From an uncultured Clostridia bacterium (GTDB lineage: Bacteria > Bacillota > Clostridia > Oscillospirales > Acutalibacteraceae), in the NCBI GenBank assembly GCA_944384985.1, contig CALWVM010000007.1:52619-116618 (forward strand): 64,000 bases of DNA, read 5' to 3'. The position numbers and the translations under genes are program-made. The notes under the pieces are model-generated. The model had not been told where the DNA came from. It was given only the letters and a program-made list of their open reading frames with translations, and searched no databases. Positions 51,125 through 64,000 of the stretch are shown piece after piece. Within the stretch, counting starts at the first letter, position 1. Each line of letters opens with the position of its first letter.

Positions 51125-51344
51125 GTTGTGTTCCTCCTTTGTCCGATGCCGTCAAGCATCGTGTGGCCTCAGTATAGCGTACCGGCGCCGTATTTGCACG
51201 CTCCAAATACCGGCCGGAAAGGAAGCCTGCGGTGCTGTCGGAAGAAGCTGGACGCGCAGCAATCATTCTGCCCAAAAAGCTTTTTGAACGCATGGGCTGT
51301 TTTTGTGTAACGCGACAAATCGTGCAAAAATTTTCCGGTTTTCG

Positions 51345-51372
51345 TTGACAAAACGGGATAGACGGATATAAT
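51345..51372 (+). promoter_or_regulatory. Promoter of glnA
   Basis: -35 TTGACA (51345-51350), 16-bp spacer, -10 TATAAT (51367-51372). Predicted start of RNA at about 51379. Confidence 0.85.
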
Positions 51373-51386
51373 AGTACCATAAACGC

Positions 51387-51430
51387 AGGGCAACGACGTC
51401 TTACGATAAGGCGTCGCTGCCCTCTTTTTT
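51387..51430 (+). terminator. Terminator-like hairpin in the glnA leader (possible attenuator)
   Basis: AGGGCA (51387-51392) pairs with TGCCCT (51418-51423), and inside a 2x2 internal loop GACGTCTTA (51395-51403) pairs with TAAGGCGTC (51407-51415), leaving a CGA loop. CTTTTTT follows. The stem begins a few bases from the predicted 5' end, and glnA starts 22 bp after the T-run. Expression therefore needs read-through or antitermination, or the hairpin defines a roughly 50-nt RNA. Confidence 0.75.
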
Positions 51431-51451
51431 ATTCGAAAGGAGAAAAAACAA

Positions 51452-52774
51452 ATGGGTTACACAAAAGAAGACGTTCTGCGCATTGCAAAGGAAAAAGACG
51501 TAAAATTTATTCGTCTGCAGTTTACTGATATTTTCGGTCAGCTGAAAAACGTCGCCATCACCGAAAGCCAGCTTGAAAAAGCGCTGGACAACGACTGCAT
51601 GTTCGACGGTTCCTCGATCGAGGGTTTTGTGCGCATTGATGAATCCGATATGTATCTGCGCCCCGACTATGATTCCTTTGTGCTGCTGCCGTGGAAAGAC
51701 AGAGTCGCGCGCATGATCTGCGACGTCTACTGTGCAGACGGCACAACGCCGTTTTTGGGCGACCCCAGAAACGTCCTGAAAAAAGTCATTAAAGAAGCCG
51801 CCGATATGGGCTACACGTTCAATGTCGGTCCGGAGTGCGAGTTCTTCCTGTTCCAGCTGGATGAAGAGGGTAACCCCACCACCAAGACCGGCGATGTCGC
51901 AGGCTATTTCGACATGGGCCCCTCCGATCAGGGTGAACAGTGCCGCCGCGAGATCTGCCTGGCGCTGGAAGACATGGGCTTCGAAATTGAAGCTTCGCAC
52001 CACGAGGTCGCCGCAGGTCAACATGAAATCGACTTCCGTTTTGACGAAGTCCTGAAAACGGCGGACAATGTTATGACCTTCAAACATGTCGTTAAGACCT
52101 ATGCACGCCGCCACGGTCTGCACGCGACGTTCATGCCCAAACCCGTATTCGGTATCAACGGTTCGGGCATGCACACCAACATGTCGCTGATGAAAGACGG
52201 CAAAAACGCTTTCTATGATCCCGACACGGAACTGGGCTTAAGCGAAACCGCCATGTACTTTATCGCGGGGCTCTTGAAGCACATCAAAGGCATTGCGGCT
52301 GTCTCGAATCCGTTGGTCAACTCCTACAAGCGTCTGGTTCCCGGCTATGAAGCGCCCGTTTACCTTTCTTGGTCCGCTTCCAACCGTTCCGCACTGATCC
52401 GTGTGCCTGCTGCGCGCGGTATGGGTACGCGCGTTGAACTGCGCTGCCCTGATCCGTCCTGCAACCCGTATCTTGAAATGGCGCTTTGCCTTGCCGCGGG
52501 TCTTGACGGCATCAAAAACAAGCTTACCCCGCCCGCGGGCACGAACAAAAACATCTTTGCCATGTTGCCCGAAGAGCTGGCGGCGGACGGGATCGACAGC
52601 CTGCCCGGTTCGCTTGCAGAAGCGCTGGTCGAATTCCAGAAGGATCCGTTCATCAAGGAAGCACTCGGCGAGCATGTCTTTACAAAGTATCTGGAAGGCA
52701 AGGAGCATGAGTGGGATAAATACCGCACCAGCGTCAGTGACTGGGAGATTGGAAACTACCTCACCAAGTATTAA
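51452..52774 (+). CDS. glnA: Glutamine synthetase type I
   Basis: 440 aa, GSI-alpha length. N-terminal beta-grasp with the Asp50-type loop [17 protein letters not shown]; catalytic core [24 protein letters not shown], and [11 protein letters not shown]-terminal [17 protein letters not shown]. No adenylylation insertion (the [10 protein letters not shown] region is followed directly by the alpha-type C-terminus), so control is expected at transcription and by feedback. AAAGGAG 8-9 nt before ATG. Confidence 0.97.
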
Positions 52775-52920: not shown

Positions 52921-53062
52921 ACGAAAAAGCCGCCCGAGGGGAACCCGGACGGCTTTTTCGCTTTTTGTAAAAAAGAAAGGGGGAGAAATGAAAAAGTTCT
53001 GCCAAACAGAAGGGGGAATTCTGTTTGCGTCGCCTCAAGAGTGGGGTTTCTCTTGATTTGAT
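52921..53062 (-). ncRNA. C-rich small RNA, copy A
   Basis: Predicted minus-strand RNA of about 140 nt. Promoter: -35 TTGTAT (53091-53096), 16-bp spacer, -10 TATACT (53069-53074). The RNA folds by eye into TCAAGAG-aaacccca-CTCTTGA, then CAAACAGAA-ttccccc-TTCTGTTTG, then a single-stranded CATTTCTCCCCCTTTC, then a terminator stem CGAAAAAGCCG... (52922-52960) with CCCC in its loop. Every loop exposes a run of four or five Cs, a pattern of Gram-positive sRNAs that pair with Shine-Dalgarno sequences. Not a known family to me. Confidence 0.7.
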
Positions 53063-53163
53063 GGTTACAGTATACCGGTAAATTATGGCGATACAATAGA
53101 AATTTATTGAACGTTTTGTAAACTCACAAAGCGCCTGTGCGGACGACCGCAGCCGGGGCTTAC

Positions 53164-53310
53164 AGATAAGGAAAAGCCGCCCGAGAGGGGCCCGGGCGGC
53201 TTTCCTTCTTTTCGTAAAAAAAGAAAGGGGGAGAAATGAAAAAGTTCTGCCAAACAGAAGGGGGAGTTCTGTTTGCCTCGAATCAGGAGTGGGGTATCTC
53301 TTGATTCGAT
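53164..53310 (-). ncRNA. C-rich small RNA, copy B
   Basis: Second copy, about 147 nt. Promoter: -35 TTGTAT (53339-53344), 16-bp spacer, -10 TATACT (53317-53322). Hairpins: CGAATCAaGAG-atacccca-CTCcTGATTCG, CAAACAGAA-ctccccc-TTCTGTTTG, unpaired TTTCTCCCCCTTTC, and a terminator stem (53168-53207) with GGCCCCTCT in the loop. Compared with copy A the first stem has changed sequence on both arms yet still pairs, while CCCC loops are kept. No terminator separates it from pheA upstream, so read-through from the aro operon could also produce it. Confidence 0.7.
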
Positions 53311-53400
53311 GGTCACAGTATACCGGTAAATTATGGCGATACAATAGAGATTTATTGAACGTTTTGTAAACTCAAAGCAAAGATGATTTTTACTTTTTGT

Positions 53401-54552
53401 TTACAGAATCTCACTGTAACTCCCAAGATAACTGAACTGCTCTGCGGAAGATTCCAATTCTGTAATCATCCGCAGGAAATTTTCGGAATAGACCGACGCT
53501 TCTATATCGAAATAGAACAGAAATTCAAAATCGCTGTTGGGCTTCGGGCGGCTTTCAAGCTTTAAGAGGTTGATATCCAGCGCATAAAACCGCGAAAGCA
53601 CTTCGTAAAGCGCACCGGGGCGGTGCGGCAGGGTGAGCATCAGACTCGTTTTGTTAGCGCCTGAAAAAATCTCCAAATCTTTGCCGATGCAGATAAAGCG
53701 CGTGTAGTTGTTTGCGTTGTTCTGCACGCTCTCGCCGAGCAACGACAGCCCGTAAAGCGCCATGCAATCCTTCGATGAGATCGCGGCAACATCGGTGCGC
53801 TCGCTTTCGGAAACGCGCTTTGCGGCAGCGGCGGTGTTCTCGCAGACCGTGACCTTGACGTTCGGGAGCTTCGAAAGGAACACGCTGCACTGCTGGATCG
53901 CCTGTTCGTGCGAAAAAATCTCGCGCACATCGGAAAGCTTTGTGCCGGGTTTCGCCAGCAGTGTGTGGTCAACTTTTAGGCGCACGCTTTTGACGATATA
54001 GAAGTTGTGCCGGTTCATCAGGTCATACACATGGTTGACGGAGCCCGCTGTGCTGTTTTCGATCGGCAAAATCCCGTAACGGCAAAGCCCCTGCTGAACC
54101 GCAGAAAAAACATCCTCCCACGAAGCAAAAAACATAATATTCGGATTTTTGAACAGCCGCTCACACGCAAGGGAGGAATACGCGCCCTCCACACCCTGGC
54201 ACGCGACCACAGCGCTTTCGGGCAGGTTTTGCATGGAAAAGCGTTCCGCACTTTCACGAATGCGGCGGCTCAGCGCAGAACTGCCGGGATCCAGATATTT
54301 ATGCTGATATGAGCGCGAAAGCCCCATAATCGTGGAATACAGCAGCCGTGTATACAGCTTCAGATCCTCGTTCTCCGATTTTTCGGCGACGCGGTCAAGC
54401 AGCTGACGCTCCCGCGCGCGGTCAAGAACGGGCAGATGGTTTTCCTGTTTATACTTTGCGACTTCCAAAGACACGCCCATGCGTTTTAAAAACAAGGGCA
54501 CGAGTTCGTCGTCAATGCGGTTGATCTCGCCGCGCAGATCCTGAATATCCAT
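53401..54552 (-). CDS. pheA: Bifunctional chorismate mutase/prephenate dehydratase
   Basis: 383 aa. Residues 1-85 are an AroQ-type chorismate mutase (DLRGEINRIDDELVPLFLKRM, KYKQENHLPVLDRARE). About 108-285 is prephenate dehydratase (QGVEGAYSS, PIENSTAGSV, and the catalytic NNYTRF). About 297-375 is an ACT domain (RPGALYEVLSRF, LLKLESRP), which binds Phe for feedback inhibition. Start at 54552 set by GGAGG 8 nt upstream. Last gene of the aro operon. Confidence 0.97.
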   Translation of the reverse strand: MDIQDLRGEINRIDDELVPLFLKRMGVSLEVAKYKQENHLPVLDRARERQLLDRVAEKSENEDLKLYTRLLYSTIMGLSRSYQHKYLDPGSSALSRRIRESAERFSMQNLPESAVVACQGVEGAYSSLACERLFKNPNIMFFASWEDVFSAVQQGLCRYGILPIENSTAGSVNHVYDLMNRHNFYIVKSVRLKVDHTLLAKPGTKLSDVREIFSHEQAIQQCSVFLSKLPNVKVTVCENTAAAAKRVSESERTDVAAISSKDCMALYGLSLLGESVQNNANNYTRFICIGKDLEIFSGANKTSLMLTLPHRPGALYEVLSRFYALDINLLKLESRPKPNSDFEFLFYFDIEASVYSENFLRMITELESSAEQFSYLGSYSEIL

Positions 54553-63916: not shown

Positions 63917-64000
63917 GCGAGAGTGGCGGAATCGGCAGACGCGCACGTTTGAGGGGCGTGTGGTAATCCCGTACGGGTTCAAGTCCCGTCTCTCGCACCA
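63917..64000 (+). tRNA. tRNA-Leu (anticodon GAG)
   Basis: 84 nt with encoded CCA. Acceptor stem GCGAGAG/CTCTCGC, D-arm GGCGGAATCGGCAGACGCG, anticodon stem CACGT/GCGTG with loop TTGAGGG (anticodon GAG), a variable arm around TGGTAATCCCGTA typical of class II tRNAs, and TPsiC arm CGGGTTCAAGTCCCG. Reads CUC/CUU leucine codons. The window ends at its last base, so any further tRNA genes in an array are not visible. Confidence 0.97.

What the first reader, a model, noticed from the sequence alone, without database searches (positions are those of the whole stretch)
52921..53344. Tandem duplicated C-rich small RNA genes between glnA and the aro operon
Seen: two 248-bp-spaced copies, each with a minus-strand promoter (TTGTAT-16-TATACT), two hairpins whose loops are ACCCCA and TCCCCC, an unpaired TCTCCCCCTTTC and a terminator with CCCC in its loop. 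Stem arms differ between copies but still pair largely, while C-loops are kept. Known: Gram-positive C-rich sRNAs such as RsaE-type RNAs pair with G-rich Shine-Dalgarno sequences. Inference: this is a multi-copy SD-blocking sRNA family, not one I know.
Basis: partly seen in the sequence, partly recalled or inferred. Interest (0 to 1): 0.85.

Follow-up and report, generated by a model that had tools for sequence, protein, structure and literature searches.

The report
Stress-linked C-rich small RNA family
Two neighbouring copies of a small RNA gene, found in many species of one gut-bacterium genus, keep an exposed stretch complementary to an idealised protein-synthesis start site, so they probably switch off groups of messenger RNAs by covering their start sites, in a way known from other Gram-positive bacteria but in a family that matches no catalogued one.

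Summary
Window 52921-53371, minus strand, has two small-RNA genes 248 nt apart, each with promoter, two C-looped hairpins, a CU-rich open stretch and a terminator. No Rfam family reaches its cut-off there or in 18 relatives' sRNA regions. I count relatives in 27 of 39 genus genomes, in four sequence types; a seed search of 394 genomes of the order found none convincing outside the genus. Helix arms diverge but keep pairing, while the seed is nearly frozen: 31 invariant nt in eight type I species. Reversed, every seed type spells SD-spacer-AUG-AAA; the plus-strand ORF this makes is not conserved.

In 31 of 32 copies a direct-repeat box sits exactly 32 nt before the -10; the same box precedes hsp20 and marR genes, suggesting a stress-responsive OmpR-type activator (inference).

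Best explanation: a trans-acting, stress-induced sRNA that blocks translation starts, like LhrC and RsaE/RoxS. The RNA family is well supported; targets are not: the best predicted target is not conserved and a seed/target test gave only a weak, uncontrolled trend. Expression is untested.

The parts
53355..53371 (-). copy 2: upstream box GTTTACAAAACGTTCAA (11-bp direct repeat, putative activator site)
   Evidence: 32 nt before the -10 as in 31 of 32 sRNA copies
53317..53344 (-). copy 2: promoter TTGTAT-16-TATACT
   Evidence: read directly; conserved in relatives
53168..53312 (-). copy 2: small RNA, about 145 nt; 5' end predicted from the -10, not mapped
   Evidence: R1 157.4 bits; this copy is in the model
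53278..53309 (-). copy 2: hairpin 1 (loop with ACCCCA)
53251..53275 (-). copy 2: hairpin 2, stem CAAACAGAA/TTCTGTTTG, loop with CCCCC
53221..53244 (-). copy 2: seed CTTTTTCATTTCTCCCCCTTTCTT, mostly single-stranded; reverse complement = SD-AGAA-ATG-AAA-AAG
53171..53205 (-). copy 2: intrinsic terminator, CCCC in loop
53107..53123 (-). copy 1: upstream box GTTTACAAAACGTTCAA
53069..53096 (-). copy 1: promoter TTGTAT-16-TATACT
52921..53064 (-). copy 1: small RNA, about 144 nt; 5' end predicted
   Evidence: R1 176.6 bits; this copy is in the model
53030..53061 (-). copy 1: hairpin 1
53003..53027 (-). copy 1: hairpin 2
52973..52996 (-). copy 1: seed CTTTTTCATTTCTCCCCCTTTCTT
52922..52960 (-). copy 1: terminator hairpin, CCCC in loop
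   Evidence: not listed by the scan
53401..54552 (-). pheA (chorismate mutase / prephenate dehydratase), last gene of the aro operon, directly upstream on the same strand; start taken at MDIQDLRGEI
51452..52774 (+). glnA (glutamine synthetase), convergent neighbour; the sRNA cannot be its leader

Best explanation
Each copy is an independently transcribed, terminator-ended, trans-acting small RNA. Shown by sequence: a conserved promoter, diverging but pairing hairpins, C-rich loops, and a nearly invariant, largely unpaired seed whose reverse complement is an ideal start site (G-rich Shine-Dalgarno, short spacer, AUG, AAA-AAG). Inferred: an OmpR/PhoB-type response regulator bound to the 11-bp direct repeat switches the RNA on together with heat-shock and MarR-type regulator genes under protein or envelope stress; the seed, helped by the other C-rich loops, pairs with the SD-to-AUG region of mRNAs with G-rich SDs and lysine-rich starts (typical of exported proteins and lipoproteins), so 30S ribosomes cannot load. 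Two copies give dose and room for divergence.
For: RNA gene: fold z -5.2/-6.6; family in 27 of 39 genus genomes by my reading; type I helix, 83.7% of cells paired against 37.5-50.0% when slid, covariation score reached by 0 of 500 shuffles; arm-swap test, own arms mean -10.7 against swapped -6.2 kcal/mol, 212 of 300 swaps weaker than both parents. Seed: CTTTTTCATTT invariant in the 13 type II rows aligned; 31 nt invariant in 8 of 8 type I genomes, whose pheA in the five loci that hold it is 58.7-64.0% identical to the window's; identical seed in two divergent paralogues whose hairpins are unrelated. Regulator box: 55 exact GTTTACANNNNGTTCA in 39 genomes against 2 for the reversed control, among them 18 sRNA promoters, 7 hsp20 and 7 marR genes; the 17-nt box ends exactly 32 nt before the -10 in 31 of 32 sRNA copies of all four types, the other being cut by a contig end (23 by the script, 8). 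Known precedents: LhrC (PMC4132741, passages) and RoxS (PMC4409812, passages).
Against: No transcript or target shown. The full seed complement (21 nt) occurs nowhere else in this genome with up to 3 mismatches. The best non-self start (-31.6 kcal/mol) belongs to a protein found in 2 of 39 genomes, own included, the other a partial 38% match. On 116 start sites of seven genomes, own-type seeds paired better on average in 5 of 6 genomes that have the RNA, but only by 0.2-0.7 kcal/mol, type I G023 went the other way (0.76), and G030, with no detected copy, gave a difference as large (0.67); no significance was computed. The box could belong to another regulator class, and it also occurs inside coding regions. 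In one search, two of five measures were reached by 249 and 486 of 500 shuffles. Folds leave 9/20 to 24/24 seed positions unpaired. No copy was detected in 12 of 39 genomes.
Confidence: 0.68

Rival explanations
1. It is a remote homologue of RsaE/RoxS (Bacillus/Staphylococcus), not an independent invention: hairpin CAAACA-CCCC-UGUUUG, then an open CU-rich stretch, then a terminator, under a response regulator.
For: RsaE matches over its full model length on the sRNA strand in 8 of 10 type II loci (25.1-36.5 bits; not L027 or L124) and in both window copies (29.6 and 24.5 bits). Local alignment to the RsaE consensus without terminator: 0 of 500 shuffles reach the score for three of the four nearest members tested and 2 of 500 for the fourth. 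RoxS has a response-regulator site near -65 (PMC4409812 passages).
Against: All scores are far below the 79-bit cut-off. Antisense-strand hits to an unrelated leader family (ylbH) reach 26.7-42.1 bits, so such scores arise without homology. More divergent members lose the likeness: G006 80/500, type I G029 21/500, G025 paralogue 11/500.
Confidence: 0.15
2. The RNA acts by binding a protein (Rho, a cold-shock protein or another pyrimidine-binding protein) as a decoy; the CU-rich seed is a protein site.
For: Long invariant pyrimidine-rich unpaired stretch; no conserved mRNA target found and only a weak trend. That Rho and cold-shock proteins like such RNA is recalled knowledge.
Against: A protein site would not need CAU at start-codon distance from the C-run in every type (types I-IV and the G006 and G007 variants).
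Confidence: 0.1
3. The plus strand encodes a small peptide (SD AAAGGGGG, ATG AAA AAG ...), and the conservation is coding.
For: Perfect SD-ATG context; 22-aa frame open in both window copies and in the closest relatives.
Against: Only M-K-K is shared by all; in 14 copies the frames are 9 to 39 aa with different ends; the minus-strand promoter and 5' end are conserved outside the frame; a terminator hairpin lies just upstream of the supposed ATG with little room for a promoter.
Confidence: 0.03
4. Cis element: 3' UTR or terminator of the pheA/aro operon, or an attenuator.
For: The 12 type II loci and five type I loci follow pheA, three type I loci follow aroC.
Against: Own promoter at constant layout; types III and IV lie elsewhere; the downstream gene glnA is convergent; two complete copies in tandem.
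Confidence: 0.04

Closest known systems
LhrC1-5 of Listeria monocytogenes
   Same: Multi-copy; UCCC motifs in loop A, in the single-stranded stretch and in the terminator loop; activator-responsive element upstream of -53; pairs with an SD to block translation (PMC4132741, passages seen).
   Different: No LhrC match up to E = 10 in the Rfam scan (that Rfam holds an LhrC model is recalled). Here two hairpins precede the seed, and the seed covers SD, AUG and two lysine codons. Regulator and targets unknown.
RsaE/RoxS (RF01820)
   Same: Several C-rich regions including a CCCC hairpin loop with a CAAACA/UGUUUG stem, an open CU-rich stretch before the terminator, a response-regulator site near -65 (PMC4409812, passages seen).
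   Different: 29.6 and 24.5 bits in the window against a 79-bit cut-off; divergent members lose the likeness; extra hairpin 1; found only in this genus in my searches.
CiaR-controlled csRNAs of streptococci
   Same: Multi-copy small RNAs under a response regulator with an 11-bp direct repeat (recalled; papers seen only in the listing).
   Different: No sequence relation tested beyond the Rfam scan.

Membership tests
RsaE/RoxS (RF01820) | Score at or above the Rfam gathering cut-off (79 bits) | tested here: not met
   29.6 and 24.5 bits in the window; 25.1-36.5 bits in type II relatives
RsaE/RoxS (RF01820) | Multiple C-rich regions, one in a hairpin loop and one in an open stretch before the terminator | tested here: met
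   for type II; type I lacks hairpin 2
RsaE/RoxS (RF01820) | ResD/SrrA control and induction by NO | not testable with these tools
   a direct-repeat box lies at about -61 to -45 but its regulator is unknown
LhrC | Match to the family's covariance model | tested here: not met
   no LhrC among 36 matches up to E = 10; presence of that model in the library is recalled
LhrC | Multi-copy with UCCC in loop, open stretch and terminator loop | tested here: met
LhrC | LisRK dependence | not testable with these tools
   no expression data
C-rich SD-blocking sRNAs (functional kind) | Accessible C-rich motif complementary to SD sequences | tested here: met
   reverse complement is SD-spacer-AUG-AAA-AAG
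C-rich SD-blocking sRNAs (functional kind) | Blocks translation initiation of named mRNAs | not testable with these tools
   prediction only; the best target is not conserved
Transcribed, terminator-ended sRNA gene | Mapped transcript | not testable with these tools
   no RNA-seq available

The most novel reading that the evidence does not exclude
The seed is a generic antisense of a whole translation start (SD, spacer, AUG and the first two lysine codons), frozen for up to 31 nt across species while the rest of the RNA turns over. The RNA would be a class-level silencer of exported-protein and lipoprotein mRNAs, fired by the same regulator that turns on hsp20 and a MarR-type regulator, to relieve the secretion/envelope load during stress in gut Clostridia.
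Probability: 0.3. Interest if true: 0.72.

Novelty: new member of a known kind. Interest (0 to 1): 0.52.

Why it matters
My paper searches (open library only) listed no paper on this RNA. The case gives a concrete family in uncultured gut Clostridia with strand, seed, sequence types and a shared promoter box, so expression, regulator and targets can be tested directly. A frozen start-site antisense with rapidly renewed helices and several lineage types is a good case for how C-rich sRNAs arise and diverge, and whether LhrC, RsaE and this RNA are convergent. The shared box also points to an unexplored stress regulon.

Tried and rejected
Rfam: no gathering match for the sRNA in the window or in 18 relative loci; the only matches were a tRNA at 63917-63997 and an unrelated T-box in L124. 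Weak R1 hits on the antisense strand of glnA starts (window 51388-51520; in L034, L035, L036, L038 and at the corresponding place in L086) come from an SD and a leader hairpin that resemble seed plus terminator; the alignment was viewed for the window hit only. glnA is not a strong pairing partner (rank 35 of 85 starts). Third copy in this genome: none found; the partial model hit at C2:14058 (E 0.0014) is the antisense of a gene start. In one search, 35 of 39 genomes had a match at E <= 1; many are terminators or antisense hits, and the count of 27 is from reading sequences, not from that tally. Order-wide seed search (394 genomes): 7 genomes, 4 in the genus; the other 3 (L192-L194) lack promoter and architecture on reading. 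That pattern misses diverged seeds (it missed the genus members G007 and G033), so absence outside the genus is only absence of a close seed. One search's one hit outside the genus (L028, 26 nt) is not the sRNA. Conserved target: the best candidate was dropped. Seed/target test: one search's list was truncated; 7 of 24 genomes were used, with antisense self hits and nested duplicates removed by hand, G012 (cut off) dropped and 16 genomes not listed (the window's own among them). Boxes inside long ORFs were taken as chance. The Fur-family neighbour (L261) is doubtful: the box lies in a stretch open for 230 codons and 306 nt before the ORF; htpG (L267) has the box but no recognisable -10 at the usual distance. 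RNAalifold on all 13 rows lost hairpin 2 because the aligner shifted one arm; nine rows were used for the model.

Papers were seen as passages (PMC4132741, PMC4409812, PMC6222199, PMC12548384, PMC8216469, PMC5419742) or as listings; none was read whole.

Full report
WHAT IS THERE. On the minus strand between convergent glnA (51452-52774 +) and pheA (last gene of the aro operon, -; Pfam) lie two copies, 248 nt apart, 94% identical over 158 nt. Each has an upstream box GTTTACAAAACGTTCAA, a promoter TTGTAT-16-TATACT, then an RNA of about 145 nt: hairpin 1 with ACCCCA in the loop, hairpin 2 (CAAACAGAA/TTCTGTTTG) with CCCCC in the loop, an open CU-rich stretch CTTTTTCATTTCTCCCCCTTTCTT, and a terminator hairpin with CCCC in the loop. 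Both fold better than all 200 shuffles (z -5.2, -6.6). RNA ends are predicted, not mapped. The generic scan listed neither this promoter nor the terminator of copy 1, and it listed terminator-like sites on the plus strand too.

HOW FAR IT GOES. blastn found it in 11 of 59 genomes, the window's own included; one of these (L028, 26 nt, another family) is chance. A covariance model built from nine copies (R1) and seed and box patterns extended this inside the genus (39 genomes, own included). By reading the hits I count 27 of 39 genomes; the raw tally (35 of 39 at E <= 1) includes chance. Type II (12: G000, G018, G019, G025, G059, G013, G024, G003, G015, G031, G007, G006): two hairpins and a CUCCCCCUU seed. 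Type I (8: G001, G002, G060, G023, G028, G022, G029, G034): one hairpin, seed ACTTTTTCATTTATCCCTTTTCTTCCCCTAA. Type III (5: G061, G009, G011, G010, G017): TTTCATTTTCATTCTCCTTTC. Type IV (2: G026, G033): CCCCCC, then CTTTTTCATTTCTCCTTTC. Types III and IV are tied to I and II by promoter box, box distance and seed logic rather than by strong model scores, so their common descent is tentative. Five genomes carry two copies (G000, G018, G019, G025, G059); in G025 and G059 the second copy has unrelated hairpins but the same seed. One public record that carries it is titled Candidatus Fimenecus (L037). In 394 genomes of the order a 24-nt seed pattern (1 mismatch) hit 7, of which 4 are in the genus and 3 do not look like the RNA; the pattern misses diverged seeds. 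Among 80 glnA-linked public loci, L034, L035, L037 and L038 carry it.

IT IS CONSERVED AS AN RNA. In type I the hairpin is supported by changes on both sides: 83.7% of cells paired against 37.5-50.0% for slid partners, and none of 500 shuffles reached the observed covariation score; on two of five measures shuffles did as well (249 and 486 of 500). Across 18 hairpin-1 versions, own arms fold at -10.7 kcal/mol on average and swapped arms at -6.2; 212 of 300 swaps are weaker than both parents. The seed does the opposite: CTTTTTCATTT is invariant in 13 aligned type II rows (G006 and the paralogues were not in that alignment) and 31 nt are invariant in all 8 type I genomes, while pheA in the five type I loci that hold it is 58.7-64.0% identical to the window's.

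NOT CODING, NOT CIS. The plus strand shows SD-ATG-AAA-AAG, but the frames that follow are 9 to 39 aa long and share only M-K-K across 14 copies. All 12 type II and five type I genomes have the RNA just 3' of pheA (in G019 the pair is split over two contigs), three type I copies follow aroC instead, and types III and IV lie elsewhere, so it is not a fixed operon part. glnA is convergent, so it is not a leader.

CONTROL. GTTTACANNNNGTTCA occurs 55 times exactly in the 39 genomes against 2 for the reversed pattern (my sum of the table). Of these, 18 are sRNA promoters; 7 precede hsp20 genes, each with a CIRCE-like repeat next to the box; 7 precede MarR-family genes. One member of each protein group was checked by Pfam, the others by their similar N-termini. 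One box precedes htpG (Pfam HSP90) but without a recognisable -10 at the usual distance, one precedes a Fur-family gene doubtfully, and others precede exported proteins or lie inside coding regions. In the sRNA promoters the 17-nt box ends exactly 32 nt before the -10 in 31 of 32 copies of all four types (23, 8); the last is cut by a contig end. Counted from GTTCA, the -10 is 33 nt away in sRNA promoters, 32 in hsp20 and 43-44 in marR, about one helical turn more. In type IV the box is GTTCAY-N5-GTTCAC. Direct repeats 11 bp apart are what OmpR-family regulators often bind (PMC6222199 and PMC12548384 passages; start of the abstract of PMC4832192). That the activator is of this family is inference.

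TARGETS. The seed's reverse complement reads SD-spacer-AUG-AAA in all types, with CAU 1 to about 8 nt from the C-run. In this genome 63 starts with G-rich SDs from two patterns, the two antisense self-starts included, were scored; the best non-self are a predicted membrane-anchored protein starting MKKEKG (-31.6 kcal/mol) and a lipoprotein starting MKKKNILQ (-28.0). One of the two patterns demands ATGAAAA, so the class bias is partly built in. The first is not conserved (2 of 39). On 116 starts of seven genomes, own-type seeds did slightly better in 5 of the 6 genomes with the RNA (0.2-0.7 kcal/mol), G023 went the other way, and G030 without a detected copy showed a difference as large (0.67); I read this as no evidence. 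The target class is a proposal.

PLACE AMONG KNOWN RNAs. By layout it works like LhrC (several copies, UCCC in loop, open stretch and terminator loop, activator element beyond -53; PMC4132741) and RsaE/RoxS (C-rich regions, CRR3 blocks the SD, regulator site near -65; PMC4409812). It is filed under neither: no LhrC match, and RsaE scores 24.5-36.5 bits against 79. The likeness to RsaE is above shuffles for near members and fades in far ones, which fits convergence better than descent, but descent is not excluded.

VERDICT. A real, new sRNA family of a known functional kind; mechanism probable, expression and targets untested.

Noticed in passing
window 51340-51450 (+): glnA leader: promoter-like TTGACA/TATAAT followed by a G+C-rich hairpin and a T-run just before the SD, which looks like an attenuator or antitermination site upstream of glnA.
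   Followed up: partly
L248 (G000:C2:29708), L228, L245, L258, L269, L270, L271: Seven hsp20 promoters carry a CIRCE-like repeat next to the GTTTACA-N4-GTTCA box, so HrcA-type repression and an activator may meet at one promoter.
   Followed up: partly
L233, L235, L237, L239, L240, L250, L264: Seven genomes have the same box about one helical turn further from the -10 in front of a MarR-family gene, with repeated GGTTAT/GGTTAA-like motifs just after the -10 that may be its own operator.
   Followed up: partly
L020:1244-1393 and L118 (second copies in G025 and G059): Divergent paralogues with unrelated hairpins but an identical seed: hairpins replaced while the seed is kept.
   Followed up: yes
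L022, L023, L024, L027 promoter regions: A further 11-bp repeat unit may lie upstream of the box in some species (for example GTTAAT-N5-GTTTAC-N5-GTTCAA).
   Followed up: no
L124:280-478: T-box leader on the minus strand near the G006 sRNA locus (Rfam RF00230).
   Followed up: no
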